A stretch of 55,893 bases of DNA from Bacteroidia bacterium (lineage in GTDB: Bacteria > Bacteroidota > Bacteroidia > Chitinophagales > Saprospiraceae), in the NCBI GenBank assembly GCA_030433135.1, contig JAUILF010000003.1, positions 1-55,893 of the forward strand, written 5' to 3'. The translations under genes and the position numbers were made by a program. Positions 2,282-36,098 of the stretch are shown here, piece after piece. The number at the start of each line of letters is the position of its first letter. The stretch's first letter is position 1. A model generated the notes under the pieces. That model was not told where the DNA came from and made no database searches. It saw nothing but the letters and a program-made list of their open reading frames with translations.

Positions 2282-5200
2282 CTAGTCATCTACCCCAATA
2301 TTATGACTTACAGCTTCATCCTTCAATTGATTAAACCTGCTCAATAATTCATCATATCGATCGTAGGCATCTTGACCGGGCTTCTGATCAGCACGATTGA
2401 GCATGTAGTACAGGTAGGAGATTTGATCCAGAAGCATAGGCTTTTGATATCTTCCTTCGGCTGTAATGAGGTCATCCTTGATTTTTGACACGGCATCCTG
2501 AGCACCACTCTCCATATCCTTCTCAATTTTTTGAGATAACTTTTGTGCTTCGTACATCAGCTTCTGTACGTTTAAAGCCAATTCTACCTGCGCTTCCATA
2601 TCAGCGATTTTTGTCCCTGATGCCAAAACGGCAGGGTCCGGCATCAATTCAGCTTGTACAACGTAAGTCTTCCTGGGAGTGACCAGATCAATGCGATATT
2701 GTCCGGGAACCACCATGGGACCAGGTAGGGTTCTCCCCGAGCCGGATTTCAATCCCTGGTGTCGCATATCCCACCTTACCTTGTGAGTACCCTGCTTATT
2801 ACTAAGAACTAAGTCCGAGGTCTGATATCCAAAACCAGTGGCCATGTCTGTTTCCTCGGTTTCACCTTTGACTGGCTCAGTACTGGAATACGACTGTACC
2901 AAAGTCCCGCTTGCATCGTAGATTTTAACTGATATGTCACCCTCGTGGTCCCCATCCAGGGTATAATAGATATTAACGCCAGGAGCCGGATAATAGGGAA
3001 TATTATTATCAGAATTGCCTCTGTACCTCAAGCGATAGGTTGGCTTGGGTTGGTACAGGGTAGTTTCATGTTGCAGCGGATCGAGATGATACAACATGGA
3101 AATGTCGTCAATAATCCAGAACCCCCGACCCATCGTGGAGATGATGAGGTCATTTTCATGTACTTTAATGTCTGTCACTGGTGTTACCGGCAGGTTTTGT
3201 TGAAAGGGTTGCCAGGATTCACCATCATTGAAGGAAAGATACATTCCAAATTCTGTTCCGGCATAGAGTAGACCAGGTCTACCCGGATCCTCGCGAATGA
3301 CACGTGTGGGATGATCAGCCGGAATGCCGTTTTGACCATCTGTCAACAAATCCCAGCTGCTGCCATAATCCACAGTCCGGTATATGTATGGCCTGAAATC
3401 TCCCAGTAAGTAACGGTAAATAGCAACATACGCTTTACCAGGTTCATGAGGACTCGCGGTAATAGTTTGCACCCTGCCGTATTCATCCATCTCAGGGGTA
3501 ACATCTTTCCAGGTCTTTCCCCCATCGCGAGTTACGTGTACAGGGCCATCATTGGCACCGACCCAGATCAGTCCTTTCTCCAGGGAAGACTCTTCCACAG
3601 CATAGATCGTGCTAAAGAATTCCTCACCTGTAATGTCCCGGGTGATTGGTGATCCCGATATGACCTGGGTCTCCGGTGTGAAAGCAGTCAGGTCCGGTGA
3701 GATGATTTCCCAGGTCTGCCCATCATTGGTTGATTTGTGCAAATATTGGGAAGCGTGGTAGATCACATCCGGATCATGGGGGGAAATGTGAATTGGGGAA
3801 ACGCGCTGAAATCTGAAAGTCAGTTCCCGGGGATTATGCCCGTACATATTGCCTGCGCCAACGTAGTATTGTCTCTCTTGTCCGGTCAGTTGATTGTACA
3901 CGCCAAACCGGCCTTTACAGTTTGAATAAATAATATTAGGATTACCAGGTTTTGGAATCGCAGGACCCGTTTCACACCCTCCTACAGCTTTCCACAGGGC
4001 ACTGTATCCACCTGGTGGGGTGATTCGGGGAAGACTGGGGAGAGCTATGGTCGTGTTATCCTGTTGACCTGCATAAAGCCAGTAGGGAGTCTGGTCATCC
4101 ACTGCGACCTGATAAAGCTCTGCAGTGGACTGATTTTCAATACTGGACCAGGTTTTTCCTCCATCCCTGGTCACTGTAGATCCACCATCGTTAGCCTGTA
4201 CCCAGGTATTGGTGTCCAGTGGATTAATCCACAGATCATGATTGTCACTGTGGGGAGTTCTGATTCTTTTCCAGGACTTTCCTGCATCGGCCGAGTGCCA
4301 GAACCTGGTCGAACTAACGTAGATGGAATTGGCATTCAGAGGGTTGGCATCAATATTACAATAGTAGAAGGGACGATCCAGCAGTTCTTTTTTGGTGGAT
4401 ACCAGCTCGAAACTTTCTCCCCGGTCATCAGAGCGGTATACTCCTCCCAGAGAATCGGGTGCTTCAATCAGTGCCCAAACGCGATTGGGGTCTGCCGGAC
4501 TGACTGCCAAATCTATCTTACCAATGATTCCTGAGGGTAAGCCTCTGGATAGTTTGTTCCAACTTTTTCCTCCGTCCTCTGATTTAAAAATGCCACCTTC
4601 ATTACCTCCACTGATAATGGTCCACGGTTTTCTCCTGGCTTCCCAGGCCGCAGCATATACGATTGAGGGGTCATCAGGAGCAAATTCCAGGTCTGCGACT
4701 CCGGTTTGGTCGGAGATGTAAAGTGTTTTTTCCCAGGAATCTCCTCCATCTGTGCTGCGATATACACCGCGCTCCTTGTTACTTGTAAAAGGGTTGCCAA
4801 TGGCTGCAACCAACACATGGTTAGTGTCGGTTGGATGGACCAATACGGCCCCAATCTGTCCGGCTTTCTCCAGGCCAATACTGTCCCAGGTATCTCCACC
4901 GTTTGTTGACCGGTACATTCCTTTTCCGATGATGACATTGCTCCTTATGCCGTCAGAACCCGTACCGACATAGATTATGTCTGGATGAGACGTCGACAAA
5001 GCAATACTTCCGATTGAGGAAGTGGTGAAATAGCCATCTGAAATGTTTTCCCAGCTATGACCGAAATTTTTTGTTTTCCATACTCCTCCTCCGGTAGCTC
5101 CCATGTAAAAGATACCTGGTAATTTTTCATGACCGGCTACTGTGGTAACTCTGCCACCCCTGTTTGGACCAATGTTTCGATATTGCAGTGCGGCTGTGAT

Positions 5201-5284
5201 ATCAGGTGCATGGGTTTTCTGAGCTTCCAGGAATTCAGCTAGCCCAAAAACTACCATAAGACTCAGTACGACGTTCAATCTCAT
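2282..5284 (-). CDS. Secreted VPS10/sortilin-like Asp-box (BNR) repeat protein
   Basis: Large secreted beta-propeller protein of the kind usually annotated glycosyl hydrolase or WD40/YVTN/BNR-like in Bacteroidota; the substrate is unknown. I use the ATG at 5284, which gives 1000 residues and a signal peptide starting MRLNVVLSLMVV; a TTG seven codons upstream is less likely. At least ten Asp boxes (S/T-x-D/N-x-G-x-x-W/F) are visible, among them STNGGDTW, STDGGDSW, SEDGGKSW, SADAGKSW, STNDGQTW, TRDGGKTW and SFNDGESW. They span roughly residues 80-720 and indicate two stacked propellers. The last 250 residues contain an Ig-like beta region and an alpha-helical tail. No T9SS sorting domain is visible. 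The gene stands alone, convergent with the M23 gene. A hydrolase function is not supported by any catalytic motif I can see. Confidence 0.85.
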   Translation of the reverse strand: MRLNVVLSLMVVFGLAEFLEAQKTHAPDITAALQYRNIGPNRGGRVTTVAGHEKLPGIFYMGATGGGVWKTKNFGHSWENISDGYFTTSSIGSIALSTSHPDIIYVGTGSDGIRSNVIIGKGMYRSTNGGDTWDSIGLEKAGQIGAVLVHPTDTNHVLVAAIGNPFTSNKERGVYRSTDGGDSWEKTLYISDQTGVADLEFAPDDPSIVYAAAWEARRKPWTIISGGNEGGIFKSEDGGKSWNKLSRGLPSGIIGKIDLAVSPADPNRVWALIEAPDSLGGVYRSDDRGESFELVSTKKELLDRPFYYCNIDANPLNANSIYVSSTRFWHSADAGKSWKRIRTPHSDNHDLWINPLDTNTWVQANDGGSTVTRDGGKTWSSIENQSTAELYQVAVDDQTPYWLYAGQQDNTTIALPSLPRITPPGGYSALWKAVGGCETGPAIPKPGNPNIIYSNCKGRFGVYNQLTGQERQYYVGAGNMYGHNPRELTFRFQRVSPIHISPHDPDVIYHASQYLHKSTNDGQTWEIISPDLTAFTPETQVISGSPITRDITGEEFFSTIYAVEESSLEKGLIWVGANDGPVHVTRDGGKTWKDVTPEMDEYGRVQTITASPHEPGKAYVAIYRYLLGDFRPYIYRTVDYGSSWDLLTDGQNGIPADHPTRVIREDPGRPGLLYAGTEFGMYLSFNDGESWQPFQQNLPVTPVTDIKVHENDLIISTMGRGFWIIDDISMLYHLDPLQHETTLYQPKPTYRLRYRGNSDNNIPYYPAPGVNIYYTLDGDHEGDISVKIYDASGTLVQSYSSTEPVKGETEETDMATGFGYQTSDLVLSNKQGTHKVRWDMRHQGLKSGSGRTLPGPMVVPGQYRIDLVTPRKTYVVQAELMPDPAVLASGTKIADMEAQVELALNVQKLMYEAQKLSQKIEKDMESGAQDAVSKIKDDLITAEGRYQKPMLLDQISYLYYMLNRADQKPGQDAYDRYDELLSRFNQLKDEAVSHNIGVDD

Positions 5285-5587
5285 TACAATCGTGTTTGAC
5301 CCCAAGGTATCATTTTGAGCAGACTTCGGATAGCGTTGTTTGAGGGCAAAATGTCAGGTCTGTCCAATTGATCACCACATCTTTTTCCCTTCAATGCTTC
5401 TGGGTTTGTATCCTCAAAGGCTAAAGACTTGCTGTGATCTTTCCCATCGGAAATTTTACTAAAATCTTTGTTTTACACTGAAAAACAATGAGTTTGGTAT
5501 TATTTTTGTTTGTAATATGTTTTGATGAGTGCAACTCAAGTTTTGCAAAAACCATCCGGATTTATATCCCGGATAACCTGATTGAAA
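5285..5587. other. Divergent intergenic region, 303 bp
   Basis: Lies between the Asp-box gene (minus) and the first giant T9SS gene (plus), so it should hold two promoters. A TATTTTTG at 5501-5508 matches the Bacteroidota -7 consensus TANNTTTG for the plus-strand gene, but a properly spaced -33 TTTG is not obvious. I see no RNA gene or repeat here. Confidence 0.3.
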
Positions 5588-8500
5588 ATGAAGCTATTAC
5601 CACTTTTTTGCATCATGTGTCTTTGCCTGGTTCTGACATTTCCCATCCATGCTCAATGCCCCTCCCTTGACTTAGATGAACAGATTCAGGTGGATTCCTA
5701 TGCCAATACGAACGCTAATTGTCATGTGATAAGCGGAGATGTGATCATCTCCGGAGCTGTGACTAATTTGCGACCCCTTTCGTTCATCAAGGAGATTCAT
5801 GGTGATCTCATTATTTCCAACACAGATATAACTTCTTTGTACCATGTTTTTCAGGATCTGCAAAGTATTGGTGGAGATTTAGTCATTGATAACAATCCTC
5901 AGTTAGGAAGTATTTCGTCAGGTTTTCCACTACTGGAGTCCATCGGAGGCTCCTTGTCGGTTGAAGGAAATGATGCTCTCTTTGTCGTAAATGGCTTGGA
6001 TCGATTGGAAAGTATTGCAGGTGGTCTCTATCTCTCATACAATAACCTGTTGTCCGAGATTCCTGCATTCAATACTCTGAAAACAACCTCGGAGATTGAG
6101 ATTTTAGGTAATGGTCTGTTGCACAAAATTGTTGGCTTTTCATACCTGGAAGATATCAATGGTGATTTGTATATAGAAGACAATCCTGTTCTTCAGCATA
6201 TCGAGGCATTTAAGGGACTAATGGAAGTAGAGAACCTGTCGATTGCATTGAACTCCAAATTGGAATCGCTGTCCGGGTTTGATAAACTTATAGAAACACA
6301 GGCTTTTTACATCGGCCAGAACGAAGGCCTTACAAGCCTCAGTGGATTCGATTATCTCGAGACTGCCAGCTCAGTGGGTGTGGTTGAGAACTTTTCTTTA
6401 CAGCAAATACAGGGTTTTGCCAGGTTGTACCAGATTACTGGACATCTGGACATTACAGATAATGCATCACTCATATATATCAACGCATTTGGTGCCCTGA
6501 AAAGAGTGGGAGGAAGACTGAGTATCTCCTCAAATGATCAACTTCCTTCTATTATTGGTTTTCAGCATCTCCACTTGATAGAAGGCAATCTGCTCATTGG
6601 AAATAACCCGATGCTGGAAAGAATTCAGGCCATGGGGAAACTGGTTGAAGTAGGTGGTGTACTTCAGCTCGAACGAAACACCTCCTTATACCAGGTGTCT
6701 CCGTTTACCACCCTTTCACAAATTGGAACACAACTGACCCTGGCATATAATGGGTTTAAGGTCCTGGGATTTCTGCCCTCCCTCCGGCAAATCGGCGGGA
6801 GTATGACTATTCGTAATGAGGTGCACCTCCAGGAAATACGGGATTTTGCCAATCTTCGTACGATTGGCGGGAGTCTAAACATAGAATTCAACCCGGTTTT
6901 GAAGTCTATCGGTGGATTTGGGAAACTGAACTCAGTTGGAGTATCCTTAAATATGAATTTCAATGAGGCACTGGTTTCGATTTCCGGATTCAACGCTTTG
7001 TCATCATTGGGACTTGATATATTCATCAATGATAATCCATCTCTCGTTTATATCAAGGGGTTTTCTCCATTGGAGGCTCTTGGAGATGATCTGCGCATAC
7101 TACGCAACGATCAACTGGCGTCCATCTTTGCTTTTGAAAACCTGGCTACACTGGACTTTTTGGAAGTCAGGTTAAATCCTGAGCTGCGGTATTGCTGTGG
7201 TTTGGCAACTCTGATTGGTCTTGGCGGATATAATACTGCCAGTATTTCGGGGAATGCAGAGGGCTGCAATTCGGTGATGGAAATAGAAGCAGCATGCAAC
7301 GCTACACTTTCGGATTGTGCCCCCAATTGCATTGGATCTATCAACGTTGCACTTGACCGGTTTGGTTTTGCTACCATGAGACCAGCTGACTTTATATCGG
7401 ATACCATGGCATGTGCAGGTGGAGTGGAGGTTACAATTGAGGATAGATTGGGCAGGATAGTATACGGTCCCAGGTTACTGGGGTTGGATGCAATCATAGC
7501 TGTTAAGGCATGCCACTTATTACGTCAACAACCTTTGAAAATTACCACGAGGGGAGGTGGAGGTGCCTGCTGGACCGATTTAACCTTTAAGAACACAGAT
7601 GGTCCGACATTGCAGGGTGAGCCGACTCAAACTGTTCTATGTGGTGATCCGCTTTCCGTTGCTCCCCTTCCCGGAACTAAAAAATATGCCTGGGTTCCCT
7701 GTCAGGCAGAACTGGAAGCAGACTGGATTACCGATTGGGTGACAACCTATGATTGTGACCCAGGTGTACAGGATACAGTGAAAGTTATATATCGAGAGTG
7801 GGAGGCTTTTGACAAAGATGGAAAGAGAGGAGTAGTCTTCGATACCATTGTGGTATTGCAATTACCCGAAATCTTACCCGAAAACATTTATTGTGAAGAA
7901 AAAGATACGGTCTACTGTGCTGACACGACTGCACAAATAGGTCCGTACATTACCTACCTCGATCCTTTGAGTAATACTTGTGTTCAAACGCCTCTTATTC
8001 GGGCCGGAGACAGGAATGATGATGGCATCCTGGAATTTTATCCCACCAGATTTGACAACAAATGTGGCATTTCAGTGCATGTAGATAGCCGCAGGTTCCC
8101 CGGAAGTTGCGAAACCAGCTATCGTGTAACTGTAGATGTAAAACAGCATTGCTATGGTATGGGGAGTCTGGCCTGCCAGGTAATACCACCGGCCGGAACA
8201 CCACCCAATATGGCTGAGATGATTGACACCGGATACTGGAGATGTGAATTTTGGGTGGTAGATCTCGATACTCTGGCACCAGAGCTGGTATGCAAGGGTG
8301 ATTCATTATTTAGTGGGCCCTTCGATATCAACAAGTTTAAACTTTATGATGACTTCTTTGGGATTGCTTCTACTGCTATTCCCGTGGCCCTGGTAAATCA
8401 GGGATTGGCAGAAAGTAAATCCAATTTCAATACAGACAACTTGCCCTACCAACTGTTGGTGGAGTCCCAACATATCCAACTGGATGATTTTGTGATAAAT

Positions 8501-11500
8501 ACTCTGGATGATATTGAAGCAGGCTTTAATGGCTTTAGTCCAGTTCCGTATTACGCTAATGCAGTGGCAGCTTACGAGGCTGAGCGTGATCAGGTGTTTA
8601 GTTTCAGCTGGGATTTTACCCTGGCACCGTTTATTAATCAAAATAACCCACAAAGCTTGCAAGCAACCCAGGACTATGCTTATGCCAGCGTATTTTACTC
8701 TGTGAATGGCTCCTCATACCGTCTGGTGCAGGGTGAAGAAATGCCCGGTTTTATCCCACCGGCAACCGCTTTTGATGCCCAAAGTCTTGTTGGGAACAAT
8801 AGTCTCAACATGGTGGCCCCGGTAGCAACCAGTCAGAGTCAGCATGGTTTTGCCCACATTCCATTGAAAGCAGGAGACAAACTACATATTGTGGCCATAT
8901 GGGATTCACCTGTGGAGACCACTTTCAGAATTATGGGCTTGAATCAGGTTTCAACCAACCCAGACGAATGTCTGGCAACGACCTACCTTCCACCATTGTG
9001 GGTTAATGATGACTGGAGTGGAGTGAAGCAGGCAAAGGCAAAGGTGGAAGACCTGGGTACATTTCAACTCGAGTACGATACGGCCAATAACTGCTGGCTA
9101 ACCCACAGTACCCTGGATTTACCGCATCGGGATGAAGCCTATAAGATCATTTTTGAGGCCTATGATAGTTGCCACAACATAGGTTACGATAGTTGTTATT
9201 TGTATGTGAAAGACCTGGTGAAACCGGTACCGGTGGTAGACAAGGGGTTTACCGTAAGCCTGAGTGACAAAAAGGTATGGATGGGAGTAAAAGCCTTCGA
9301 TGAAGGTAGCAAGGATAATTGTGCCATGAATCTCGTACTGATACGCCGACAGGACTGGCTGGAAAGCTGTATGGATTTATGCGATAGTATGGAGGTTTTG
9401 TGTGTGACGGACCACCATGACACAATATGGAAACCCTACCTGCAGCCGGATAAGAGAATAGATGAAGTCGAAGCTCACTATGCGCAGGCACTGGGTTGGA
9501 TAAAAAATGAAACGGAAGCCTGCGGTGAATTGCTATACAACGCCTGGATCTATGACTTGATCAAATACGGGACCACAGTTTGTCAGAAGGGGGAGTTTCA
9601 ATTGACCGATGAAGGATTTAACAACTTACTGGACAGCTGTGCCTATGAGATCGAACCATACTTTGAAGATGTGATGGTGGCCCCGGGAGATACCCGTTCG
9701 GTAGCCAGGTTGTCGCATGGGCTCCTCAATACTTATGCCCAACTCGGTGGTGGATGGAGTAAGGAAGTTCCCTTTAGCTGTGAGGATGCCTGCGGTCCGG
9801 TCACGGTGGAAGTGCTGACCATGGATTACTGGTGTAACTGGGCTATCGGATGGACAAAGGTATGGGTAGAGGATCAGTATCCTGTAGAGATCAGAGAGGA
9901 TATCGAGTCTGCTGTTTCAATTTCCTGCAAATCATTTCGGGATTCAAAATATATGCTTCCTGACAGCAGTCCACATTATAGCATTGAAGATTTGGTGGAC
10001 CTGGGGATGCAGGGCGATAGTGTTGCCTTTGAGGCCCTGGATAATATTTTTGGAGGCTTTGAAAAAGCCTGGGTTGATCCCTACGGTGAATATGTGGATA
10101 TCGATGGAAATCCCGTAGACCGGAAAATCCGCTTTTCTGATAGTATATGCTATTGTACAAGTTATTATAAGGAAGTCAGAGTGAGGGATGAATACGGATC
10201 TTATCACTGGGTTGATTCGCTGGTGACAGAATGTTATTACCTGGAAGATTCATTGGACCTGATTCATGGAATTGTGCAGGTTAATTGTGCCGGAAATGTT
10301 TACTGCTCACAGGAAGTCTGGTCAGACATTGACCATTGTGGAGAGGGCTATATTCAACGGAAGTTTAAGATATGGCAAAGCTGTCCGGATGAGTTTTATC
10401 ACAGCGACAAAGTGCCTGATTCACTCAAACATCCGGTGGACACTCTTATCAGACAGCAGAGAATATGGGTGGGTAATAATTGTCCACTGAGCAAATACAT
10501 GTTTGAGGTTCCTGAAGACACTACAATTATTTCCTGTGGTATAGTATATGATGATCACGGCAATGTCACCGGAGATGCAGATCCCGATCAAATCGGGGAA
10601 GCCATCTACAAGTTTGATGACGACTGCCGACTGGTAGGAATTACACACAACGACAGAGTGTTTCAGATAGTGGGAGGGGGCGAAAATGCCTGTTTCAAGA
10701 TCCAGCGGACATGGTATTTTGCCGATTGGTGTACCTATGGTGAATCAACCAATCCCAACTGGTGGAAAGACTATGACCTGGTATTGGATTCCTGTGTCCA
10801 GACTATCTTACTGGTGGATACCATTGCACCGCAATGTCAGATATATGGACCGGTGATGCATGGGGATACGCTGGAAGTGGGAACCTGCGACTATGATCTG
10901 GAAGTAGAAGTGGAGGCCGATGATATATGTGGAATCATGTCATACAGTTGGAAGTTATTTGCAACTGATGAAGGAGACTACAGCATGATTGCTTCATTTG
11001 ATGATCAAAAAAGTGGAAGTAATGCGTTTAGTATTTCTATCCCGGATCTGGATTTCGGGTCATATGAATTGAAAGTTACCGTCGAAGATGCCTGTGGCAA
11101 TGAGAGTAGCTGCAACTATGCTTTTACTCTCATTTCAGTAAAAAAACCAACGGCGATTTGTCTGACATCTATAACGGCCAGACTGGTGCCCTGGGACCTC
11201 GATTTTGATGGAACTGCTGACTCCAGTCTAGCTATCATATGGGCATCTGAATACAATCAGAGTAGTCAGCCAGCCTGTGGTGATGACTACCTGGAATATC
11301 GCATTGAATTTCTGGATGGAGTAGGTGATGAAACCTATGAAGATGATGCCGATAGCTTGGTGGTGAGTTGTGCCCATGTTGGTGCTCAGCTGGTGAGAAT
11401 GTGGATGATCAGTCAGCCCAGTGGTACGGCAGATTACTGCGATGTTGTTCTGGTAGTACAGTCGGATGGAAGTTGCAGTGATCCAGGTCAGGAAAATGAG

Positions 11501-11881
11501 TTGGAGTCCAATATAGTGGAGAGGCAAATTCAGGAACAGCCGGTCAGGTCTCATCATGATGACAGGGTTGTTGTCATACCAGCTGATGCAGCGTCAACTT
11601 CAGTTTATCCAAAAGATAGTGAAGGTTTTGTATTGGAGCAGAACAGACCTAACCCGTTCCAACACTCTACCACGATTGAGTTCAACTTACCATTCAAATC
11701 AGATGTGACGTTAACCCTCTTTGATCCATCTGGTAGGGAGTTGTATCGGGTAGAGGGAGATTTTGCTAAAGGTAGAAATCAGATATTACTTCCAGCCAGT
11801 CGACTTGTTCAGCAGGGTGTGATCTACTACAGACTCTCTGCGGGGTCCTACACTGCGGTTATGAAGATGGTAAAGCTGTAA
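5588..11881 (+). CDS. Giant secreted T9SS cargo protein with receptor-L-domain/LRR-like repeats
   Basis: Predicted cell-surface protein of 2097 residues, function unknown. The chosen ATG (5588) gives a signal peptide, MKLLPLFCIMCLCL to about residue 23; an in-frame TTG lies two codons upstream. Residues about 60-540 are some twenty repeats of roughly 23 residues of the pattern GF-x2-L-x2-IGG-x-L-x-I-x2-NP-x-L, typical of receptor-L-domain/leucine-rich solenoids. Residues about 578-2000 are Cys/Trp-rich modules with recurring motifs such as CEDACGPV, DYWCNW and TWYFADWC, probably Ig-like adhesive domains. The last 85 or so residues (from QNRPNPF near 2014) form a T9SS type A sorting domain. 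The region from about 578 onward is paralogous to the next gene. Most likely an adhesin or matrix protein; no enzymatic motif is seen. Confidence 0.85.
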   Translation: MKLLPLFCIMCLCLVLTFPIHAQCPSLDLDEQIQVDSYANTNANCHVISGDVIISGAVTNLRPLSFIKEIHGDLIISNTDITSLYHVFQDLQSIGGDLVIDNNPQLGSISSGFPLLESIGGSLSVEGNDALFVVNGLDRLESIAGGLYLSYNNLLSEIPAFNTLKTTSEIEILGNGLLHKIVGFSYLEDINGDLYIEDNPVLQHIEAFKGLMEVENLSIALNSKLESLSGFDKLIETQAFYIGQNEGLTSLSGFDYLETASSVGVVENFSLQQIQGFARLYQITGHLDITDNASLIYINAFGALKRVGGRLSISSNDQLPSIIGFQHLHLIEGNLLIGNNPMLERIQAMGKLVEVGGVLQLERNTSLYQVSPFTTLSQIGTQLTLAYNGFKVLGFLPSLRQIGGSMTIRNEVHLQEIRDFANLRTIGGSLNIEFNPVLKSIGGFGKLNSVGVSLNMNFNEALVSISGFNALSSLGLDIFINDNPSLVYIKGFSPLEALGDDLRILRNDQLASIFAFENLATLDFLEVRLNPELRYCCGLATLIGLGGYNTASISGNAEGCNSVMEIEAACNATLSDCAPNCIGSINVALDRFGFATMRPADFISDTMACAGGVEVTIEDRLGRIVYGPRLLGLDAIIAVKACHLLRQQPLKITTRGGGGACWTDLTFKNTDGPTLQGEPTQTVLCGDPLSVAPLPGTKKYAWVPCQAELEADWITDWVTTYDCDPGVQDTVKVIYREWEAFDKDGKRGVVFDTIVVLQLPEILPENIYCEEKDTVYCADTTAQIGPYITYLDPLSNTCVQTPLIRAGDRNDDGILEFYPTRFDNKCGISVHVDSRRFPGSCETSYRVTVDVKQHCYGMGSLACQVIPPAGTPPNMAEMIDTGYWRCEFWVVDLDTLAPELVCKGDSLFSGPFDINKFKLYDDFFGIASTAIPVALVNQGLAESKSNFNTDNLPYQLLVESQHIQLDDFVINTLDDIEAGFNGFSPVPYYANAVAAYEAERDQVFSFSWDFTLAPFINQNNPQSLQATQDYAYASVFYSVNGSSYRLVQGEEMPGFIPPATAFDAQSLVGNNSLNMVAPVATSQSQHGFAHIPLKAGDKLHIVAIWDSPVETTFRIMGLNQVSTNPDECLATTYLPPLWVNDDWSGVKQAKAKVEDLGTFQLEYDTANNCWLTHSTLDLPHRDEAYKIIFEAYDSCHNIGYDSCYLYVKDLVKPVPVVDKGFTVSLSDKKVWMGVKAFDEGSKDNCAMNLVLIRRQDWLESCMDLCDSMEVLCVTDHHDTIWKPYLQPDKRIDEVEAHYAQALGWIKNETEACGELLYNAWIYDLIKYGTTVCQKGEFQLTDEGFNNLLDSCAYEIEPYFEDVMVAPGDTRSVARLSHGLLNTYAQLGGGWSKEVPFSCEDACGPVTVEVLTMDYWCNWAIGWTKVWVEDQYPVEIREDIESAVSISCKSFRDSKYMLPDSSPHYSIEDLVDLGMQGDSVAFEALDNIFGGFEKAWVDPYGEYVDIDGNPVDRKIRFSDSICYCTSYYKEVRVRDEYGSYHWVDSLVTECYYLEDSLDLIHGIVQVNCAGNVYCSQEVWSDIDHCGEGYIQRKFKIWQSCPDEFYHSDKVPDSLKHPVDTLIRQQRIWVGNNCPLSKYMFEVPEDTTIISCGIVYDDHGNVTGDADPDQIGEAIYKFDDDCRLVGITHNDRVFQIVGGGENACFKIQRTWYFADWCTYGESTNPNWWKDYDLVLDSCVQTILLVDTIAPQCQIYGPVMHGDTLEVGTCDYDLEVEVEADDICGIMSYSWKLFATDEGDYSMIASFDDQKSGSNAFSISIPDLDFGSYELKVTVEDACGNESSCNYAFTLISVKKPTAICLTSITARLVPWDLDFDGTADSSLAIIWASEYNQSSQPACGDDYLEYRIEFLDGVGDETYEDDADSLVVSCAHVGAQLVRMWMISQPSGTADYCDVVLVVQSDGSCSDPGQENELESNIVERQIQEQPVRSHHDDRVVVIPADAASTSVYPKDSEGFVLEQNRPNPFQHSTTIEFNLPFKSDVTLTLFDPSGRELYRVEGDFAKGRNQILLPASRLVQQGVIYYRLSAGSYTAVMKMVKL

Positions 11882-11971
11882 TACCTAGAACAGCACGAAA
11901 GATATTAAATAGGAATATATTTCCTGGAATATTACAGAAAGTAGGTTGCAATACTTATTATTGTGTTGAAT

Positions 11972-12002
11972 ATATAGTTTGTTGATGATCAGCAAACTAT
12001 AT
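11972..12002. promoter_or_regulatory. 31-bp near-perfect palindrome upstream of second giant gene
   Basis: The arms are ATATAGTTTGTTGA and TCAGCAAACTATAT, complementary at 13 of 14 positions around a 3-base loop. It ends 31 bp before the ATG at 12034. It could be an operator, a 5'-UTR hairpin or the terminator stem of the preceding gene. The following bases (CTTATTTA) are not a convincing U-run, so regulation seems at least as likely as termination. Confidence 0.45.
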
Positions 12003-12033
12003 CTTATTTAACCGATTGAGATACCAACCTACC

Positions 12034-15000
12034 ATGCACCAGTTCACACAACTGATTAGCAGAGGGTTATGTGCCCTTGTACTTCTATTTTCCCTTTCGA
12101 TTTGTTCTACCGTATACGGCTTTCAACAGACACCGGTTCCTTCCATTCAACATGATGCCGTGGATGTTCCAAATGTCCCGATTTCATCAAACCTACTAAC
12201 AGCTCCTTGCTCCAGTCCGGGTAGTTTTGATCAAATGTTACCGTCTTCCGCTGCAATAGCCTCACAAGAATTTGAAGCAGCCAACAGTGATTTTGATTGT
12301 CAGGCAGCTGATGATTTTGACTTGCCGGTCGCAGCTAACCTGGTATCTATTCATGTAGAGGGTATGTTCAATTTTAATGGTGGCACTCCTCCTCCTTCTT
12401 TCAACGTATTTATCTATGAAGACGCCGGTGGATCACCCGGGAATCAGGTTTATACTGAGAATATAGCAAATGCTGGAAATACACTGAGTCCAACCCTGGA
12501 CTTAGGCAATTGTCCATTGTTACCTGCGGGGACGTACTGGGTGTCGGTACAGGCCCGGGCTGATTTTGGGACACATGGGCAATGGTTCTGGAGTACTTCA
12601 ACTACAGGGGTCTCGGGACCTTCCCTTTGGCAAAATCCAAGCAATGGCTTTGGAAATAATTGTCTTACGTGGATGGCATCGACAGGTTGTGTATCCCCTA
12701 ATCATGTTTCCAATCTGTTCTCCATTAACTATTGTCCTGCCACTCTTTCTGCTGGATCCATCAATTGCCGCGATGCCAACCTAAGTTTGGATACGGCAGG
12801 ACTGGTACATTTTACTCCGGCAGATTTCATACCCGGAGCTACCAACGCTGATGTGGTAGATGTCGTCGTGTCTACCTTCAGTGATCAAAGAATCTACACC
12901 CAGAATGGAGTAGCCGGGGATGCACTGGTTTCATTCAACGTATGTGCTTATCTCGACCGGTCTTTGAAGGTATCCTTCAGCAATGGTACATCGAACTGCT
13001 GGAGCACATTGACCTTTAAGCAATCCGGAGGAGGAAGTGGCCAGGGTAGAAGTAAAGATGTATGGTGTTTCGACGATCTGGTGGAGGGTGGTGACATCGA
13101 TGGAGAAGGACCAGTGGTGTCGATACCATGTGGGCCACAAATCGAACTGGAATTTGTATCCGACTGGATCGATGGATTTGATTGTACGGTGGCCACTCCG
13201 ATGAATACCCCTGAAAGCGATACCGCCAAGATCATCTATCGCGAATATGAAGGCTTTTACAAGGGAGAACGGTTTTCAATCGTCGATACCATAACCGTAT
13301 TTCGGTTGCCGGCGATCATTGCCGGGTTCTCGGGAGAAAACACCTATTGTGCTGCATCGGATACAACCTACTGTGGAGAGGGCTTTGCCGGACCTTTTAT
13401 GATCATCCCGGAGCGCTGTGATCCGGCTCTGTTTGGTATGGACCAGGATGGAGACGGGGTGCCCTGTGATACAATTTACTTCATGAAATACGATGAGGAG
13501 ACCGGTCAATGGGTAGCCAACGAACTGGCCTCCAAATGTGGGTTGAACATCCACCTGGATCAAACACCCTTTGCAGCTGGCAGCTGCGAGACAACCACCA
13601 AATTTCGGCTCGAGTTGAAGCAAAACTGTTACGGTGCTGAGACCGGATCGATTTGCAGCATGGCCACTTCCGACAATGCATTTGAATACATTTCCCCTAA
13701 CCCATTTACCGGCTTGGGTGAGCCCCTGTACCTGGCTTGTGAGTTCTGGCTGACGGATCTGGACACACTGGGGCCTGGACTGGATGTAGTCGAACCAGTA
13801 CTGACATTGAACAGTACTGATCATGGATGTGAGGCACACGGTTACGTATCAGCCCTGCAAGTGATGGATGAATGGAGTGGAGTGAAACAGGTAAAAGCCA
13901 CGATTCCTCTCATCGGATCAGTTGTAATGCAATTGGATGACGCTGATGGTTTGCACAAGGCTACTTCCGGCCTTAAACTGCCATTAAAGGAGGGGCCATA
14001 CAAGGTGATATATGAAGCAATTGATTCGTGCCATAATCTTTCGATTGATAGTTCATATATCTACGTGAAAGATAACATAGCTCCTATCGCAGTGTCGGAA
14101 AAAGGGGTGACCGTCAGCTTAAGTGATAAAAAGGTCTGGGTTGATGCGGAAACTTTTGATGAAGGAAGTTGGGATAACTGTGGATTTGAGATAATGTTGG
14201 CACGAAGGACAGACTGGTACACTGCCTGCGTAGATTTGTGTGATAGTTCTCAGGTGTGTTGGGTGACCGAACATCATGATACCTTATTTATTCCTGTTTT
14301 GGAATCCGATAAACACCAGGACGAGGTAGAAGCCCATTATGCAAAAACGTTGGATTGGTTATATCATGATGGCGGCGTGTGTTATGACATTCTTTATAAT
14401 GCCTGGATGTATGACCTTATGAAGTACACAACAATAGGTTGTCAAACAACTGATTATGATGAGCATTCGGATGCATTCAGAAAACTGGTGGAAGAAACCT
14501 GGAGCAAAGGCCTGTTTTCCAAGTTTAAGAACAATAGTTATGCACTGGCATCAGGCCCATTTAGTCAATTTTCTAAAATAGATCTTTATTCCAGGGAGAC
14601 AGAATCCATTGGTGATATTCCTGGGTTGATTACAGAGATTGAATTTGATGCTAAGTCAGGACGATTATTTGGTACGCAGGGAGGTGGTGCTTCACAGGTT
14701 TTTGAGCTGGATCCCATGACTGGTGCTGTTCTCAGTGTTATGAGCCATCGATTTGGAGCTATCAATGGACTTGAGTTTATTAATGGAGTGCTGTATGGCA
14801 CCCACATTCCTTTCGGAGGCGAACCTAGTATCCTGGTTGCTTTGGACGCAGATACAGGTGAATTTATTGAAATAGGCCCAACAGGATACGGTCCAATCAC
14901 TGGTCTGGCCTTTGACGAGTGCGAGGGAGTGCTCTATGGTATGTCGAATGGAGATCGATATGATGAAGATGGAAACTATTTTTTCGACGATCAGCAATTG

Positions 15001-17403
15001 TTGAAGATTGATCTGAAGACCGGTTTGGCCACCGCTGTAGGCTATACAGGAGTTGATAAGATGGGAAGCATAGAGTTTGGAGCAGATGGAAAACTTTATG
15101 GAGGTACTACTGATATCAGTGTTGATCCATTTGGATTGTTTGAACTGAATCTTGAAAGCGGAGAAGCTGTAAATATTGGAAGTACTGGATTAACTCTTAC
15201 CGGACTGACCTCTACCACTTTCAGTACCTGTCCGGACACTCAGCTTGACCTCTACGAAGCCATCGGTGGCGGCTGGAGCGATGCGGTGCCCTTTAGTTGT
15301 GAAGACGCTTGTGGTCCTGTAACGGTAGAGATCCTGGTGATGGACTACTGGTGCAATTGGAGCAAGAGCTGGACCGAGGTATGGGTGGAAGACAAGACCC
15401 CGGTGAAAGTGGAGAAAGATGTATTGGCTGAGGAAGACATTACCTGCAAGACGTATAAAGATGCGCGCTATAGTTACCCGGGAGAAGACCATGCGGTGAG
15501 CCTGGAATATCTGGTAGCTCAGGGCGAAGCCGGTGATAGCACCGCGCTGGCTACCCTGGATGGCATCTGGGGTGGTTACTGCAAAGCCTGGGTAGACCCC
15601 TATGGCAACTATGTGGATATCGACGGCAACCTGATTGACTGTGACCTGCCGTTTTCTGATAGTATTTGCCAATGCAGTACGGAGAAGAAACAGGTTAGGG
15701 TTTACGACGATCACCTGGGATACATCTGGAAAGATTCGGTGGTGACCGAATGCTACTATGAGCAAGACTCACTGACCTTCCAAAAAGGAATTATTGCTGT
15801 GAACTGTGCCGAGAATGTGTATTGCGAGCAAACGGTATGGAGCGACTTTGATGCTTGTGGCCAGGGTTATGTATTCCGTAAATGGAAGATCTGGCAGGGT
15901 TGTCCGAGCTATCCAGCCGATAGTCTGGCCCATGTACCGGATACGATCATCCGTACCCAGCGCATCTGGGTGGGTAACGAATGCGATCTGAGCAAATACA
16001 TGTTCGATGTACCCGCAGATACGACCATCGTGAGTTGTGCGGTTGAATATGATCCGGCAGGCAGTGGTAAAATAATAGGAGCAGCCGGACCGGAGAGTAC
16101 CGGATATGCGACCTATAAGTTTGATGATGACTGTCGCCTGGTAGGTATCGGATATGAAGACAAGGTATTCAAGGTGGTGGGAGGTGACCTGGGTTGCTAT
16201 AAGATCCAGCGTACCTGGTACTTTGCCGACTGGTGTGAAAATGGAAAGTCAACACAGAAACGCTGGTGGCACCAAAGTGGATATCTGGATAAATGTGTAC
16301 AGACCATCGTGGTTCAGGATACCACGGCACCGGTATGCCTGATTACCGGCCCGGTAGAGGATGGGGGAGAAGTAACCTCTTTCAGCTGTGATTATGACCT
16401 TAGTGTGGAGGTGAGTGCAGGAGATGCCTGTGGAGTAAACAGTTATCAATGGGACTTGAGTGAATGGGTGGACGGAAGTCTGGTAATTTATACCAGTGAT
16501 GCAGGGAGCCTGGAGTCAGATACCACGGAGCAGTTTGAGATTACAGTGGAAGGATTGTTGCCGGGTGACTATCAACTCAGAGTGGTCACCACCGATGACT
16601 GCAATAATGAAAATGCCTGTGAGTATAATATCACCATTAGGGGAGGGAAGAAACCCACACCGGTATGTATCAGCAGTATGACAGCGACTCTGACGCCATG
16701 GGACAGTGATGGAGATGGAGAAATTGATACAGCCAGTACAGTGATCTGGGCTGAGGAGTTTAATAGCAGCAGCCTGGCAGCTTGTGCTGATGACAGCCTG
16801 GCTTACCGTTTGGAGTTTGTGGATGGGGTAGGAGATACTACCTGGGTGGATGATGCAGATTCACTTAATCTGGGATGCGAAGACCTGGGAGCACATTTTG
16901 TGCGGATGTGGGTCATCAGCTATCCGAGTGGTACGGCAGATTACTGTGATGTGGTGATGGTGGTTCAGGGAGACTTTATCGGATGTGCTGATATTAGCAG
17001 TAATGTAGAAGCGGGAGATATGAGTCAGACAAGAGGTGCAGGACAAACTGCCGGTGATCATAGCAAGGAATTGGTGGATGGAGATGCATCAGATGGAGAA
17101 ATACCGGCAGATGCATCCATAGCCGCTCGGGGATATGAGACAGGATTTATGCTAAAGCAAAATCAACCGAATCCGTTTTCCACAGAGACTACTATCGGAT
17201 TCATTCTACCTGACCCAACACAAGCTACACTTACTTTTTATGATGTGACCGGAAGAGTGTTAAAACAAATCGAGGGTTACTATGTGAAAGGACTCAATGA
17301 AATCAAAGTAGAAGGGTTTGATCTTGACCACATTGGCATTCTCTACTATCAGTTAGATACGGACCGACACACAGCTACCAGGAAGATGCTGATTGTCCGG
17401 TGA
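12034..17403 (+). CDS. Giant secreted T9SS cargo protein, paralogue with inserted propeller-like module
   Basis: Predicted surface protein of 1789 residues. The ATG at 12034 gives a signal peptide (MHQFTQLISRGLCALVLLFS, cleaved near VYG); a TTG six codons upstream is an alternative. Residues about 50-240 form an N-terminal beta-sandwich-like domain with the motif DCQAADDFDLP, unlike the solenoid of the neighbour. From about 244 to the end the protein is paralogous to the preceding gene, sharing CEDACGPVTVE, YWCNW, TWYFADWC and the T9SS tail (QNQPNPF near 1706). Between about residues 838 and 1069 it has an extra segment with repeats such as SGRLFGTQGG, NGVLYGT, EGVLYGM and DGKLYGGTT, which looks like a beta-propeller; the paralogue has a short unrelated segment there. 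Shared peptides use different synonymous codons in the two genes, so the duplication is old. Function unknown. Confidence 0.85.
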   Translation: MHQFTQLISRGLCALVLLFSLSICSTVYGFQQTPVPSIQHDAVDVPNVPISSNLLTAPCSSPGSFDQMLPSSAAIASQEFEAANSDFDCQAADDFDLPVAANLVSIHVEGMFNFNGGTPPPSFNVFIYEDAGGSPGNQVYTENIANAGNTLSPTLDLGNCPLLPAGTYWVSVQARADFGTHGQWFWSTSTTGVSGPSLWQNPSNGFGNNCLTWMASTGCVSPNHVSNLFSINYCPATLSAGSINCRDANLSLDTAGLVHFTPADFIPGATNADVVDVVVSTFSDQRIYTQNGVAGDALVSFNVCAYLDRSLKVSFSNGTSNCWSTLTFKQSGGGSGQGRSKDVWCFDDLVEGGDIDGEGPVVSIPCGPQIELEFVSDWIDGFDCTVATPMNTPESDTAKIIYREYEGFYKGERFSIVDTITVFRLPAIIAGFSGENTYCAASDTTYCGEGFAGPFMIIPERCDPALFGMDQDGDGVPCDTIYFMKYDEETGQWVANELASKCGLNIHLDQTPFAAGSCETTTKFRLELKQNCYGAETGSICSMATSDNAFEYISPNPFTGLGEPLYLACEFWLTDLDTLGPGLDVVEPVLTLNSTDHGCEAHGYVSALQVMDEWSGVKQVKATIPLIGSVVMQLDDADGLHKATSGLKLPLKEGPYKVIYEAIDSCHNLSIDSSYIYVKDNIAPIAVSEKGVTVSLSDKKVWVDAETFDEGSWDNCGFEIMLARRTDWYTACVDLCDSSQVCWVTEHHDTLFIPVLESDKHQDEVEAHYAKTLDWLYHDGGVCYDILYNAWMYDLMKYTTIGCQTTDYDEHSDAFRKLVEETWSKGLFSKFKNNSYALASGPFSQFSKIDLYSRETESIGDIPGLITEIEFDAKSGRLFGTQGGGASQVFELDPMTGAVLSVMSHRFGAINGLEFINGVLYGTHIPFGGEPSILVALDADTGEFIEIGPTGYGPITGLAFDECEGVLYGMSNGDRYDEDGNYFFDDQQLLKIDLKTGLATAVGYTGVDKMGSIEFGADGKLYGGTTDISVDPFGLFELNLESGEAVNIGSTGLTLTGLTSTTFSTCPDTQLDLYEAIGGGWSDAVPFSCEDACGPVTVEILVMDYWCNWSKSWTEVWVEDKTPVKVEKDVLAEEDITCKTYKDARYSYPGEDHAVSLEYLVAQGEAGDSTALATLDGIWGGYCKAWVDPYGNYVDIDGNLIDCDLPFSDSICQCSTEKKQVRVYDDHLGYIWKDSVVTECYYEQDSLTFQKGIIAVNCAENVYCEQTVWSDFDACGQGYVFRKWKIWQGCPSYPADSLAHVPDTIIRTQRIWVGNECDLSKYMFDVPADTTIVSCAVEYDPAGSGKIIGAAGPESTGYATYKFDDDCRLVGIGYEDKVFKVVGGDLGCYKIQRTWYFADWCENGKSTQKRWWHQSGYLDKCVQTIVVQDTTAPVCLITGPVEDGGEVTSFSCDYDLSVEVSAGDACGVNSYQWDLSEWVDGSLVIYTSDAGSLESDTTEQFEITVEGLLPGDYQLRVVTTDDCNNENACEYNITIRGGKKPTPVCISSMTATLTPWDSDGDGEIDTASTVIWAEEFNSSSLAACADDSLAYRLEFVDGVGDTTWVDDADSLNLGCEDLGAHFVRMWVISYPSGTADYCDVVMVVQGDFIGCADISSNVEAGDMSQTRGAGQTAGDHSKELVDGDASDGEIPADASIAARGYETGFMLKQNQPNPFSTETTIGFILPDPTQATLTFYDVTGRVLKQIEGYYVKGLNEIKVEGFDLDHIGILYYQLDTDRHTATRKMLIVR

Positions 17404-34008: not shown

Positions 34009-36060
34009 CTATTGTTTAAGTATTTTCACAGTTTGGCTAATCCCAGAGTCGCTGTTGATTCTGGCAAAATACCAACCCGCCGGAAGGTCGCCTGAATTCC
34101 AGGAGATTTCGTTGACACCCTGTGAATACAGCTGGGGCTCGAAGTCGGTTACCAATTGTCCCTGGGCGTTGAAGACGTCGATATTGACCTGGGATGCTTT
34201 TTCCAGCGTAAGGGTGATTGTCGCCTGATCAAAAAACGGGTTTGGATAGGCAGTCATGGCTATCTCACCCTTTATCTCTACAGGTGGAGCGATATTCAAT
34301 CCGGCAACTGGCAAACTTTGAGCCGGTCCTTCTCGGGGAATCAGACCACCACATGCTCCATCTCCTGCCCACGGCGGTGCCAGGTAGGGAAACTTCCTTT
34401 GAAAGTCAGCATCATTTTGCTCAACTCCTGTACTGTAGGTCAATACATCAAGCAGATCCTGTGTAACCGGATTGGCATCACCGGCCTGGTAGTCATCATA
34501 CCACAAACCGATCGCAGCCAGAACGGCTCCTGATACTGCCTGTAATTCAATACGGGTGACATCGTCTTCTAGTCTCCGACCGTTGGGAAATCCATCCATA
34601 TTGGGAATAAATTGAGCTCGGGTGGATTTATTATATCTGGGATCCGTCAGTCCCAGTACTGCTGCCTGTATAAGTCCAAGACTGCTGAAATCGGGATGGT
34701 TACGTGGGGTTGTAGGTACGGCTATATTCAATCTTAACATATCTCCTCCGTTAGGCAGAAAATTATTCACCAAAGGTTTTCCGGCTGCCAGTGGGTTGCC
34801 ATTTTTGCCGGTTGCCAATTGATAGGGTGGGACGTTTGGCACTCCGGTGTGGAAGATGGGCCATAGATCTACGGAACGCGGCATGCCCGGACCGGGTAAT
34901 AGCAAGCTGCCAAATACATTATCATCCAGGGCAGTCCCTTCTACAGCCTCACTTCCTTTGAGCCCGAACAATCCGTCATTACCATTACCAAAGTCAAAAG
35001 CCTGAAGGGCATTGCGCTGAATACGTAGTTGAGAAAAGGCGGGAACGGCTCCTCCGAAAAGGCTGTCATCCATATATAGGGCGAGCTCGGGGTTATAAAA
35101 GAATGGGTCTAGCAAAGTGTCGGCCAACTCATCGTAAGGACTCAGGGCATTCCAATAATCCTTCATGCCGATCGGAATCACGGCTTCATTGGTCAGGGGC
35201 ATACCTAGTCGGGATACCTGGACCCAGGGACCTTCGTGCTTTTCTTTTCCCGCAGAAAGGGTTCTGATTTGTCGCCGGCTGGCAGAAGCCCATACACCGA
35301 TAACGAAATCAGAATCAAACATGTCCTTACGCTGAGGATACTGTCCGGTTCGTGAGAGATAGGTAATAGGAATTTCTAAAGCGATAGCACTGACGTTTTT
35401 ACATGCCAGGCCATCCCGTGGTTCACCACCTTGCCGGGGACTATCTCCCAGATCAAAGATTCCGCCAAGGTCAACGAAGAATGGATCGTCCATGGGTCCA
35501 CAGTAGGCTCTTTCACCCAAAGGACTCGCAAAAATGGCGCTCTTCATGATCTTATCATAAGTGGTATTCAGACCGACGGCCGACTCGATTGATCGGTCTC
35601 CAATGTTGTTCGGAGGGACCTCACCATTTATGATAAGCGGGATAAACCTTCTACCACCATCGGTACTGCGTTCCATGGTGTAGGTAGTTTTGAGGTTTTG
35701 CCTACCCAGTCTGATGTTAAAGAAGGTACCCGGATCTTCATTCTTGATGTTGAAAGTAAACCGGTATATGATGTCATCACCCGGATTGTTAACATCATTA
35801 TCTATATGAATTTCGTAGCGGATGTTCTCACCAAAAGTGTAGTAATTAGGGCCACCGTGCGGTAGCTGGAGCGGAACATAAGTTGCTATGATCGTAACCG
35901 TGTTTTTGTTGTTGGGACTTCGGAAAGCATAAAGGTCAACATTGTCCGCCAATGGATCATCAGCTACCAGGGGTGCTTCCCGGTGACTGGAACTCCAGAG
36001 GAAAACGGGCCCCAGACAGATGAGAAGGATGGTCGTAATTATGAATTTTTTGCAATACAT
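34009..36060 (-). CDS. DUF4331 secreted protein with T9SS sorting domain
   Basis: Predicted surface protein of 683 residues. The signal peptide (about 1-23) is followed directly by the DUF4331 hallmark SSHREAPLVADDPLADN-type opening (24-40), which is also where the mature chain should begin. The DUF4331 region runs to about 580 with landmarks such as YEIHIDND, GPMDDPFFVDLGGIFDLG and LPNGGDMLRLN. Residues about 600-683 form a T9SS type A sorting domain (AYPNPFFDQATITLTL, ending in SQTVKILKQ). DUF4331 has no established biochemical function that I know of. The neighbour 38 bp upstream is a close paralogue lacking this tail. Both follow an ECF sigma/anti-sigma pair on the same strand. Confidence 0.88.
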   Translation of the reverse strand: MYCKKFIITTILLICLGPVFLWSSSHREAPLVADDPLADNVDLYAFRSPNNKNTVTIIATYVPLQLPHGGPNYYTFGENIRYEIHIDNDVNNPGDDIIYRFTFNIKNEDPGTFFNIRLGRQNLKTTYTMERSTDGGRRFIPLIINGEVPPNNIGDRSIESAVGLNTTYDKIMKSAIFASPLGERAYCGPMDDPFFVDLGGIFDLGDSPRQGGEPRDGLACKNVSAIALEIPITYLSRTGQYPQRKDMFDSDFVIGVWASASRRQIRTLSAGKEKHEGPWVQVSRLGMPLTNEAVIPIGMKDYWNALSPYDELADTLLDPFFYNPELALYMDDSLFGGAVPAFSQLRIQRNALQAFDFGNGNDGLFGLKGSEAVEGTALDDNVFGSLLLPGPGMPRSVDLWPIFHTGVPNVPPYQLATGKNGNPLAAGKPLVNNFLPNGGDMLRLNIAVPTTPRNHPDFSSLGLIQAAVLGLTDPRYNKSTRAQFIPNMDGFPNGRRLEDDVTRIELQAVSGAVLAAIGLWYDDYQAGDANPVTQDLLDVLTYSTGVEQNDADFQRKFPYLAPPWAGDGACGGLIPREGPAQSLPVAGLNIAPPVEIKGEIAMTAYPNPFFDQATITLTLEKASQVNIDVFNAQGQLVTDFEPQLYSQGVNEISWNSGDLPAGWYFARINSDSGISQTVKILKQ

Positions 36061-36098
36061 TTTCTGCTATTTATGGTTTGAGAGAAAGTTTACCGGAT

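What the first reader, a model, noticed from the sequence alone, without database searches (positions are those of the whole stretch)
5588..17403. Adjacent giant paralogues that exchanged their N-terminal modules
From about residue 578 of the first and 244 of the second, the two proteins share a Cys/Trp-rich architecture and the same T9SS tail. Their N-termini are unrelated: an L-domain solenoid versus a DCQAADDF beta-sandwich. This looks like a conserved stalk with exchangeable tips, perhaps for different surfaces or partners.
Basis: seen in the sequence. Interest (0 to 1): 0.6.

Follow-up and report, generated by a model that had tools for sequence, protein, structure and literature searches.

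The report
Surface stalk proteins with swappable heads
A bacterium of the Saprospiraceae carries a large family of giant surface proteins built on one shared stalk, and one of the two neighbours in this window is a patchwork of pieces related to different family members, so these bacteria seem to diversify their surface by changing heads and inserts on a fixed scaffold.

Summary
The two proteins share three colinear stalk blocks (31%, 49%, 51% identity; best 721 bits) and a T9SS tail, and their N-termini are unrelated.

The pair did not swap heads with each other; they are not sisters in any stalk block. Protein 1 is sister to one gene of another genome in all three blocks. Protein 2 is a mosaic: head, first block, second block plus propeller, and third block have different nearest relatives. 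Two blocks are 97% identical to two paralogues whose other comparable blocks are 43-54% identical. At a syntenic locus in another genome, protein 2's place is held by a head-less member.

An S1 profile finds 14 matches in the own genome (10 full length) and 12 in a relative (8 full length). Best reading: T9SS-anchored fibrillar adhesins on a stalk without a Pfam family, diversified by module gain and ectopic recombination. Main caveats: fragmented metagenome assembly (19 of 23 sibling ORFs run off contig ends); adhesion is untested.

The parts
5588..11881 (+). P1, giant T9SS-tailed protein (2097 aa from the ATG; 2099 aa from the TTG at 5582)
5654..7294 (+). P1 head: L-domain solenoid (P1 residues 25-571)
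   Evidence: Recep_L_domain 65.1 bits, cut-off 21.8; shared with L081_4539 (42%) and L082_6099 (36%)
7295..8287 (+). P1 stalk block S1 (572-902)
8288..8968 (+). P1 insert at port 1 (903-1129), no Pfam match; in a cluster of 15 module sequences (port-1 inserts or sequence before S2)
8969..9634 (+). P1 stalk block S2 (1130-1351)
9725..11476 (+). P1 stalk block S3 (1382-1965)
   Evidence: model of P1 895-2094
11633..11872 (+). P1 T9SS type A sorting tail (2018-2097), below the curated cut-off
   Evidence: TIGR04183 20.4 bits, cut-off 23; own tail profile
12034..17403 (+). P2, giant T9SS-tailed protein (1789 aa from the ATG; 1795 aa from the TTG at 12016)
12193..12738 (+). P2 head (60-241), choice_anch_R-like below cut-off; shared with L083 (45% over 163 aa)
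12739..13776 (+). P2 stalk block S1 (242-587)
12761..13771 (+). tract 90.8% identical in DNA to own contig C559
13807..14493 (+). P2 stalk block S2 (598-826)
14512..15228 (+). P2 insert at port 2: beta-propeller (833-1071)
   Evidence: DUF6923 26.4 bits, cut-off 27; Z 18.2, rmsd 2.6 over 186 residues to 2iwa; shared with L079 (50%)
15244..17010 (+). P2 stalk block S3 (1077-1665)
15258..16110 (+). tract 90.0% identical in DNA to own contig C399, up to that contig's end
16231..16334 (+). 104 nt identical to the end of own contig C96: a possible misassembly point
17137..17400 (+). P2 T9SS type A sorting tail (1708-1795)
   Evidence: TIGR04183 25.2 bits, cut-off 23
2282..5305 (-). neighbour: Sortilin-Vps10/BNR protein, the synteny marker shared with G005 (60%)

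Best explanation
The two genes belong to a multigene family of very large cell-surface proteins exported by the type IX secretion system. A three-block, cysteine-rich, mostly beta stalk (S1-S2-S3) ends in a T9SS sorting tail that fixes the C-terminus to the outer membrane, so the N-terminal head points outwards. Extra domains occur at four places: the N-terminus, between S1 and S2, between S2 and S3, and before the tail. Heads and inserts are binding or spacer folds, so the proteins most likely work as fibrillar adhesins of different specificity. The family diversifies by gaining and losing modules and by ectopic recombination or gene conversion between copies that share stalk blocks. P1 is an old unit inherited whole; P2 is a patchwork. 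Shown by computation: shared stalk, variable ports, unrelated heads, multicopy family, incongruent ancestry of P2's blocks, a different occupant at one syntenic locus. Inferred: export and anchoring, outward orientation, adhesion, and recombination rather than assembly error as the cause of the two 97% blocks.
For: Stalk homology. Multicopy family: 14 S1 matches in the own genome, 12 in G005. Variable ports over 80 genus ORFs. Nearest relative differs by module in P2 but not in P1. P2's S1 is 97% identical to C559 while S2 is 54%; with C399 it is 43%, 51% and 97% for S1, S2, S3. AU rejections. Silent matches clustered in both tracts: longest run reached in 13 and 12 of 5000 shuffles. Head-less gene at P2's place in syntenic G005. 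A propeller at the same port in another assembly, L079. T9SS present: SprA in two pieces over the cut-off and 109 sorting-tail matches at E <= 0.001. Heads with L-domain, malectin, Big_9/cadherin, SdrD_B or DUF7933/DUF11 domains.
Against: Metagenome assembly with possible chimeras: 19 of 23 sibling ORFs run off contig ends, and P2 contains 104 nt of the end of C96. P2's grouping with L079 in S2 has support 94, not starred, and P2 is in no starred set in that tree. P2's S1 and that of the positional orthologue L081_11585 fall in one 8-row clade (96*), so S1 is not wholly foreign to the locus. Block discordance is rare: 13 of 345 within-genome pairs, 4 of them due to a mis-cut S3 of L095, leaving 9. 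No head has a known ligand, and 29 of 49 measurable heads are under 100 aa.
Confidence: 0.65

Rival explanations
1. P2 is an assembly chimera: a short-read assembler joined pieces of different stalk genes at repeats, so the mosaic is not biological.
For: 19 of 23 sibling ORFs end at contig ends. P2 holds 104 nt identical to the end of C96, and 112 nt identical to C559 inside S1. Contamination 4.97%.
Against: The tracts are 90-91%, not 100%, identical to the putative sources. The tandem arrangement beside P1 and the sortilin gene recurs in G005, and P2's S3 falls with that positional orthologue in a 5-row clade (97*). The propeller sits at the same port in L079. No reads were available, so this is not excluded.
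Confidence: 0.18
2. P1 and P2 are a tandem duplicate pair that later exchanged or replaced their N-terminal heads.
For: Adjacent, same strand, same stalk plan.
Against: Not sisters in S1, S2 or S3 (AU p 5e-5, 1.6e-4, 2e-49). P1's head is shared with its stalk sister in another genome. P2's head is shared with L083, not with a P1-type gene.
Confidence: 0.04
3. The proteins are structural matrix or coat proteins (biofilm matrix, sheath, S-layer-like) rather than adhesins; head changes reflect drift or protein-protein assembly.
For: No head has a proven ligand; many members have no head. 10 of 30 scanned members match Dockerin_1 and 5 of 30 Cohesin at E <= 0.01, modules that could link subunits.
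Against: Sibling heads contain malectin, L-domain and Big_9/cadherin domains, usual in binding or adhesion proteins (general knowledge). Diversity per genome fits variable ligands better than a uniform coat (inference).
Confidence: 0.2

Closest known systems
Porphyromonas gingivalis gingipain/HagA adhesin regions (PMC5266723; abstract and the section on haemagglutinin-like adhesins read)
   Same: T9SS-exported surface proteins with a common C-terminal domain, combinatorial adhesin modules, recombination between copies; repeats that automated assembly could not resolve.
   Different: There the modules are CAD and DUF2436 domains behind a protease or alone; here a different three-block stalk with four ports and unrelated heads. 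The paper compares strains of one species; here the comparison is between copies and species.
Fibrillar adhesins (PMC8286594, passages read; PMC10952558, abstract and section 3.9 read)
   Same: Adhesive domain projected by stalk domains from a C-terminal surface anchor; shuffling of adhesive domains over stalks.
   Different: The stalk here is not a tandem array of a listed stalk Pfam family; P1 and P2 have no Pfam match over its cut-off in the stalk.
Aureispira grappling hook protein A, GhpA (PDB title; ixotrophy recalled, no paper read)
   Same: Giant surface protein of a Saprospiraceae relative (taxonomy recalled); Foldseek match to 9flw_A, E 3.2e-10.
   Different: TM-scores only 0.09/0.16, and no sequence match of the stalk profiles to it (up to E 10; up to E 1).
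SprB-type gliding adhesins (recalled; PMC9870892 seen only as a search listing)
   Same: T9SS-exported giant surface filaments of Bacteroidota.
   Different: No SprB-repeat family among the Pfam matches listed; tail is type A; CHU_C (type B) matched only 1 of 30 members.

Membership tests
T9SS type A cargo | C-terminal type A sorting domain over the curated cut-off | tested here: met
   P2 25.2 bits, cut-off 23; but P1 20.4, below it; 29 of 30 members match at E <= 0.01
T9SS type A cargo | T9SS machinery in the genome | tested here: met
   SprA in two pieces over the cut-off of 200 bits (1869 and 446); other components not searched
T9SS type A cargo | Exported and anchored at the outer membrane | not testable with these tools
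   needs proteomics or microscopy
Fibrillar adhesin | At least one known adhesive domain | tested here: inconclusive
   P1 has Recep_L_domain and two siblings malectin; whether these are on the published list of adhesive families was not checked
Fibrillar adhesin | At least one listed stalk Pfam domain, commonly in tandem | tested here: inconclusive
   no stalk match over cut-off in P1 or P2; siblings have SdrD_B, DUF11 or Big_9 arrays in their heads; the published list was not checked
Fibrillar adhesin | Binds a surface or ligand | not testable with these tools
   needs binding assays
GhpA grappling hook | Sequence homology to GhpA | tested here: not met
   no GhpA chain with profile A3 up to E 10 or A2 up to E 1, at that sensitivity
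GhpA grappling hook | Same fold | tested here: inconclusive
   Foldseek E 3.2e-10 but TM 0.09/0.16
SprB-type adhesin | SprB repeats and a type B (CHU_C) tail | tested here: not met
   Pfam scans of P1, P2 and 30 members list no SprB repeat; CHU_C in 1 of 30
Surface-variation gene family | Recombination between copies creates mosaic expressed genes | tested here: inconclusive
   incongruent trees and clustered silent matches in P2; assembly error not excluded
Surface-variation gene family | Variants arise within a population or during growth | not testable with these tools
   needs isolates or long reads

The most novel reading that the evidence does not exclude
The stalk blocks act as shared homology cassettes: ectopic gene conversion between a dozen or so loci lets heads and inserts be re-mounted on a homogenised scaffold. 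This would give a Saprospiraceae lineage a renewable repertoire of surface binders, close in logic to antigenic-variation gene families, but in what seem to be environmental bacteria and with whole unrelated folds as the exchanged unit.
Probability: 0.3. Interest if true: 0.75.

Novelty: new variant of a known kind. Interest (0 to 1): 0.5.

Why it matters
Modular adhesins are known, and so is recombination in T9SS surface proteins. Less usual is one scaffold without a Pfam family, restricted to a small lineage in the genomes sampled, present in about a dozen copies, with four fixed insertion points and traces of block-wise exchange between copies. If long reads confirm it, the same stalk at the same locus carries different heads in two species. 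What the head binds and what the stalk contributes could then be separated by experiment. It also warns that such genes break, and may mislead, short-read metagenome assemblies.

Tried and rejected
Rejected: recent tandem duplication of the pair; motif-only similarity. By sequence the stalk profiles matched only azurins (E 0.5-0.8) and a TATA-binding protein (E 4.2) among solved chains, taken as chance.

Led nowhere: paper searches for this family or its setting. One search gave 4 papers with Saprospir* + type IX secretion + adhesin (listing only); two searches gave 0; one search gave 1 paper with Saprospiraceae + cohesin + dockerin (listing only); some searches were seen as listings apart from the three papers named in Closest known systems. 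Structure comparison: the whole-model Foldseek lists are Ig-, cadherin- and propeller-type chains with low TM. The second looks mostly cover P1 1746-2094 and the P2 propeller. S1, S2, the P1 insert and the P2 head were barely tested, so no claim is made that their folds are new. The first segmentation read only part of the loci and was replaced.

Limits of the counts: Family-level genomes, Membranihabitans and JAHQVP rows were left out of trees and port table (80 of 103 distinct ORFs kept); heads that run off a contig are lower bounds. S3 AU tests used 26 of 64 rows; the last S2 tests 32 of 65. All trees are 'quick' trees, and several AU groups were named after a tree had been seen. The S3 of L095 was mis-cut onto S2-like sequence, which spoils 4 of the 13 discordant pairs; other cut-off genes in the 345 pairs may be affected too. 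One search does not show cut-offs for all members; besides tail, dockerin and cohesin, the families it lists match one or two of 30 members each. In one search, three T9SS-protease or sortase models match 10-21 of 30 members at E <= 0.01, probably through the tail (inference). Multi-genome searches scored at most 12 or 7 candidates a genome, so copy numbers are taken only.

They are replaced here, the copy-number wording is narrowed to the two genomes counted, and 13 discordant pairs are now told as 9 usable ones.

Full report
WHAT IS THERE. The window (contig C371 of a 577-contig, 6.3-Mb assembly; completeness 91.18, contamination 4.97) carries two giant genes in a row: P1, 5588-11881, and P2, 12034-17403 (TTG starts at 5582 and 12016 are also possible). 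Residue numbers below count from the TTG. BLASTP finds three colinear homologous blocks of 31%, 49% and 51% identity, the last with 721 bits. I call them S1 (P2 242-587), S2 (598-826) and S3 (1077-1665); a T9SS tail follows. The N-termini have no match to each other.

Each protein has an unlike insert inside the stalk: P1 903-1129 between S1 and S2, and P2 about 827-1076 between S2 and S3. The P2 insert is a beta-propeller: DUF6923 at 26.4 bits (cut-off 27), and the model matches propellers at Z 18.2, rmsd 2.6 over 186 residues (2iwa) and about Z 16 for YWTD propellers of LRP6. The P1 insert has no Pfam match at E <= 0.1. P1's head is an L-domain solenoid (65.1 bits). P2's head resembles choice_anch_R below the cut-off, with a low-confidence model.

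THE FAMILY. A P2 search of the own genome returned 57 matches. Six-frame translation of the fetched contigs gave 23 stalk or tail ORFs besides P1 and P2, and an S1 profile gives 14 matches, 10 of them full length. G005, a 99% complete genome of the same genus, has 12, of which 8 are full length. All 5 same-genus relatives have matches (21-34 each). In an even sample of the phylum, 5 of 296 genomes (own included) have S1, all in the same family, and only one outside the genus has a nearly complete S1. Named records with relatives are Saprospiraceae, Lewinellaceae or 'Bacteroidia' MAGs and the strains Membranihabitans marinus CZ-AZ5 and M. maritimus C281. That the window is itself from the Saprospiraceae is inferred from these. 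Profile segmentation of all loci then held gave 103 distinct ORFs. In the 80 genus ORFs the head ranges over 29-3975 aa (49 measured), port 1 over 14-245 (50), port 2 over 18-267 (59) and port 3 over 24-560 (55). Other heads hold DUF7933/DUF11 arrays (C559, L079), SdrD_B/DUF11 (C80) and Big_9/cadherin (L084), and two members without an S1 hit carry malectin plus SdrD_B (C209, C187). A DUF6923 propeller stands at port 2 in P2 but in the head of L119 of Membranihabitans (70.7 bits).

WHO SWAPPED WITH WHOM. P1's closest relative is one and the same gene, L081_4539 of G005: head 42%, S1 69%, insert 47%, S2 67%, S3 59%; they are sisters in S1 (99*), S2 (95*) and S3 (97*). P1 is therefore an old unit. 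P2 is not. Its head is nearest to L083 (45% over 163 aa), S1 to own C559 (97%), S2 and propeller to L079 (63%, 50%), S3 to own C155 over its length (70%) and to C399 over the 283 residues held (97%). P2 and C559 are 97% identical in S1 but 54% in S2; P2 and C399 are 43%, 51% and 97% identical in S1, S2 and S3. AU tests reject P2+L079 in S1 (p 1.9e-4), P2+C399 in S1 (0.0022), P2 with the C559 group in S2 (0.0027), P2+C399 in S2 (3e-6) and P2+L079 in S3 (1e-60, 26 of 64 rows). P1 and P2 as sisters are rejected in all three blocks. Weaker points: P2's place beside L079 in S2 has support 94, not starred, and some groups were chosen after seeing the trees.

TRACTS. The shared DNA covers window 12761-13771 (90.8%, C559) and 15258-16110 (90.0%, C399, to that contig's end). 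In each, silent matches are clustered: the longest run is reached in 13 and 12 of 5000 shuffles. Identical fourfold sites vary from 14 of 28 to 27 of 34 between sub-blocks of the first tract, and from 14 of 31 to 31 of 33 in the second. This suggests several exchanges of different age (inference). Tract edges coincide with the edges of the homologous block, as expected if exchange needs homology, so they do not prove designed cassettes. In the Ww617 assembly two genes share 1640 identical nucleotides over most of S3, while S1 is 84% and the tail 29% identical; assembly collapse cannot be excluded there. Over all within-genome pairs with at least two comparable blocks, 13 of 345 differ by 25 points or more; 4 of the 13 rest on a mis-cut S3 of L095, leaving 9. 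Exchange is thus visible but not common.

THE SAME LOCUS ELSEWHERE. In G005 (L081, contig JABDMH010000075.1) the sortilin-type neighbour (60%), a P1 orthologue and a second stalk gene stand in the same order. The second gene, L081_11585, has S1 from residue 35, hence no head, and ports 1 and 2 of 58 and 84 aa. Its S3 is in the same five-row clade as P2's (97*) and its S1 in the same eight-row clade (96*), but P2+L081_11585 is rejected for S2 (p 3.4e-4). At one chromosomal place, head, S2 and port-2 insert differ between two species. The other P1 relative, L082 of Ww617, showed no sortilin-type neighbour in its 20.7-kb locus, so one syntenic comparison is all there is.

HOW IT PROBABLY WORKS. 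Type A T9SS cargo is anchored by its C-terminus after export (established knowledge, recalled), so the head would point outwards. The genome has SprA and 109 sorting-tail matches at E <= 0.001. The models show chains of mostly beta domains with good local and weak global confidence (pLDDT 78.9 and 76.0, pTM 0.45 and 0.50). One part, P1 1747-1852, matches small beta-sandwich domains (9kvu, Z 10.9, rmsd 2.4 over 91 residues), and a longer range matches PECAM-1 Ig domains (Z 10.5, rmsd 3.4 over 168). Many cysteines are invariant in the alignments, so a stiff disulphide-stapled stalk is plausible but not shown. The most economical function is adhesion with different specificities; a matrix or coat role is the main functional rival.

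CAVEATS. 19 of the 23 sibling ORFs run off a contig end, and P2 contains 104 nucleotides identical to the end of contig C96. The P. gingivalis study reports adhesin regions that automated assembly could not resolve (PMC5266723, section read). The 90-91% identity of the tracts, the tandem pair in G005 and the propeller at the same port in another assembly argue against a chimera but do not exclude it.

COMPARISON AND VERDICT. Closest in kind are the recombining gingipain/HagA adhesins (PMC5266723) and fibrillar adhesins (PMC8286594, PMC10952558). In P1 and P2 the stalk has no Pfam or NCBIfam match over its cut-off apart from the P2 tail, and the stalk profiles have no convincing sequence match among solved chains. 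My searches for a printed description of this family found none in the held library, which lacks most subscription journals. I file it as a new variant of a known kind.

Noticed in passing
L102:11229-12449, L103:10944-12152, L090:4689-5927, L119:11736-12935 and related members: Many family members, but not P1 or P2, have a module of about 320 aa before the tail (a cluster of 38). Pieces match Dockerin_1 (26.9 and 25.3 bits in L102 and L090, cut-off 22.9) and Cohesin (28.1 in L119, cut-off 24.1; 23.5, below it, in L103). A dockerin and a cohesin in one module could let subunits link up.
   Followed up: partly
28 complete genus genes: Heads and the port-3 dockerin/cohesin-type module look nearly exclusive: 0 of 10 genes with a head of 100 aa or more have port 3 over 300 aa, against 12 of 18 without such a head. 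Exceptions outside this set: L102 and the malectin class L103, L104, L136. Not corrected for relatedness.
   Followed up: partly
L086:2370-7730 and L089:3495-8825: Two stalk genes of the Ww617 assembly share 1640 identical nucleotides over most of S3, with tails only 29% identical: gene conversion or assembly collapse.
   Followed up: partly
S2 (window 13807-14493) and S3 (window 15244-17010): The S2 and S3 profiles cross-match (S3 profile positions about 423-503 hit S2), so the stalk seems to contain internal duplications.
   Followed up: no
window 34009-37868, - strand: Two adjacent DUF4331 proteins; in the Pfam scan only the one at 34009-36060 has a T9SS tail match.
   Followed up: no
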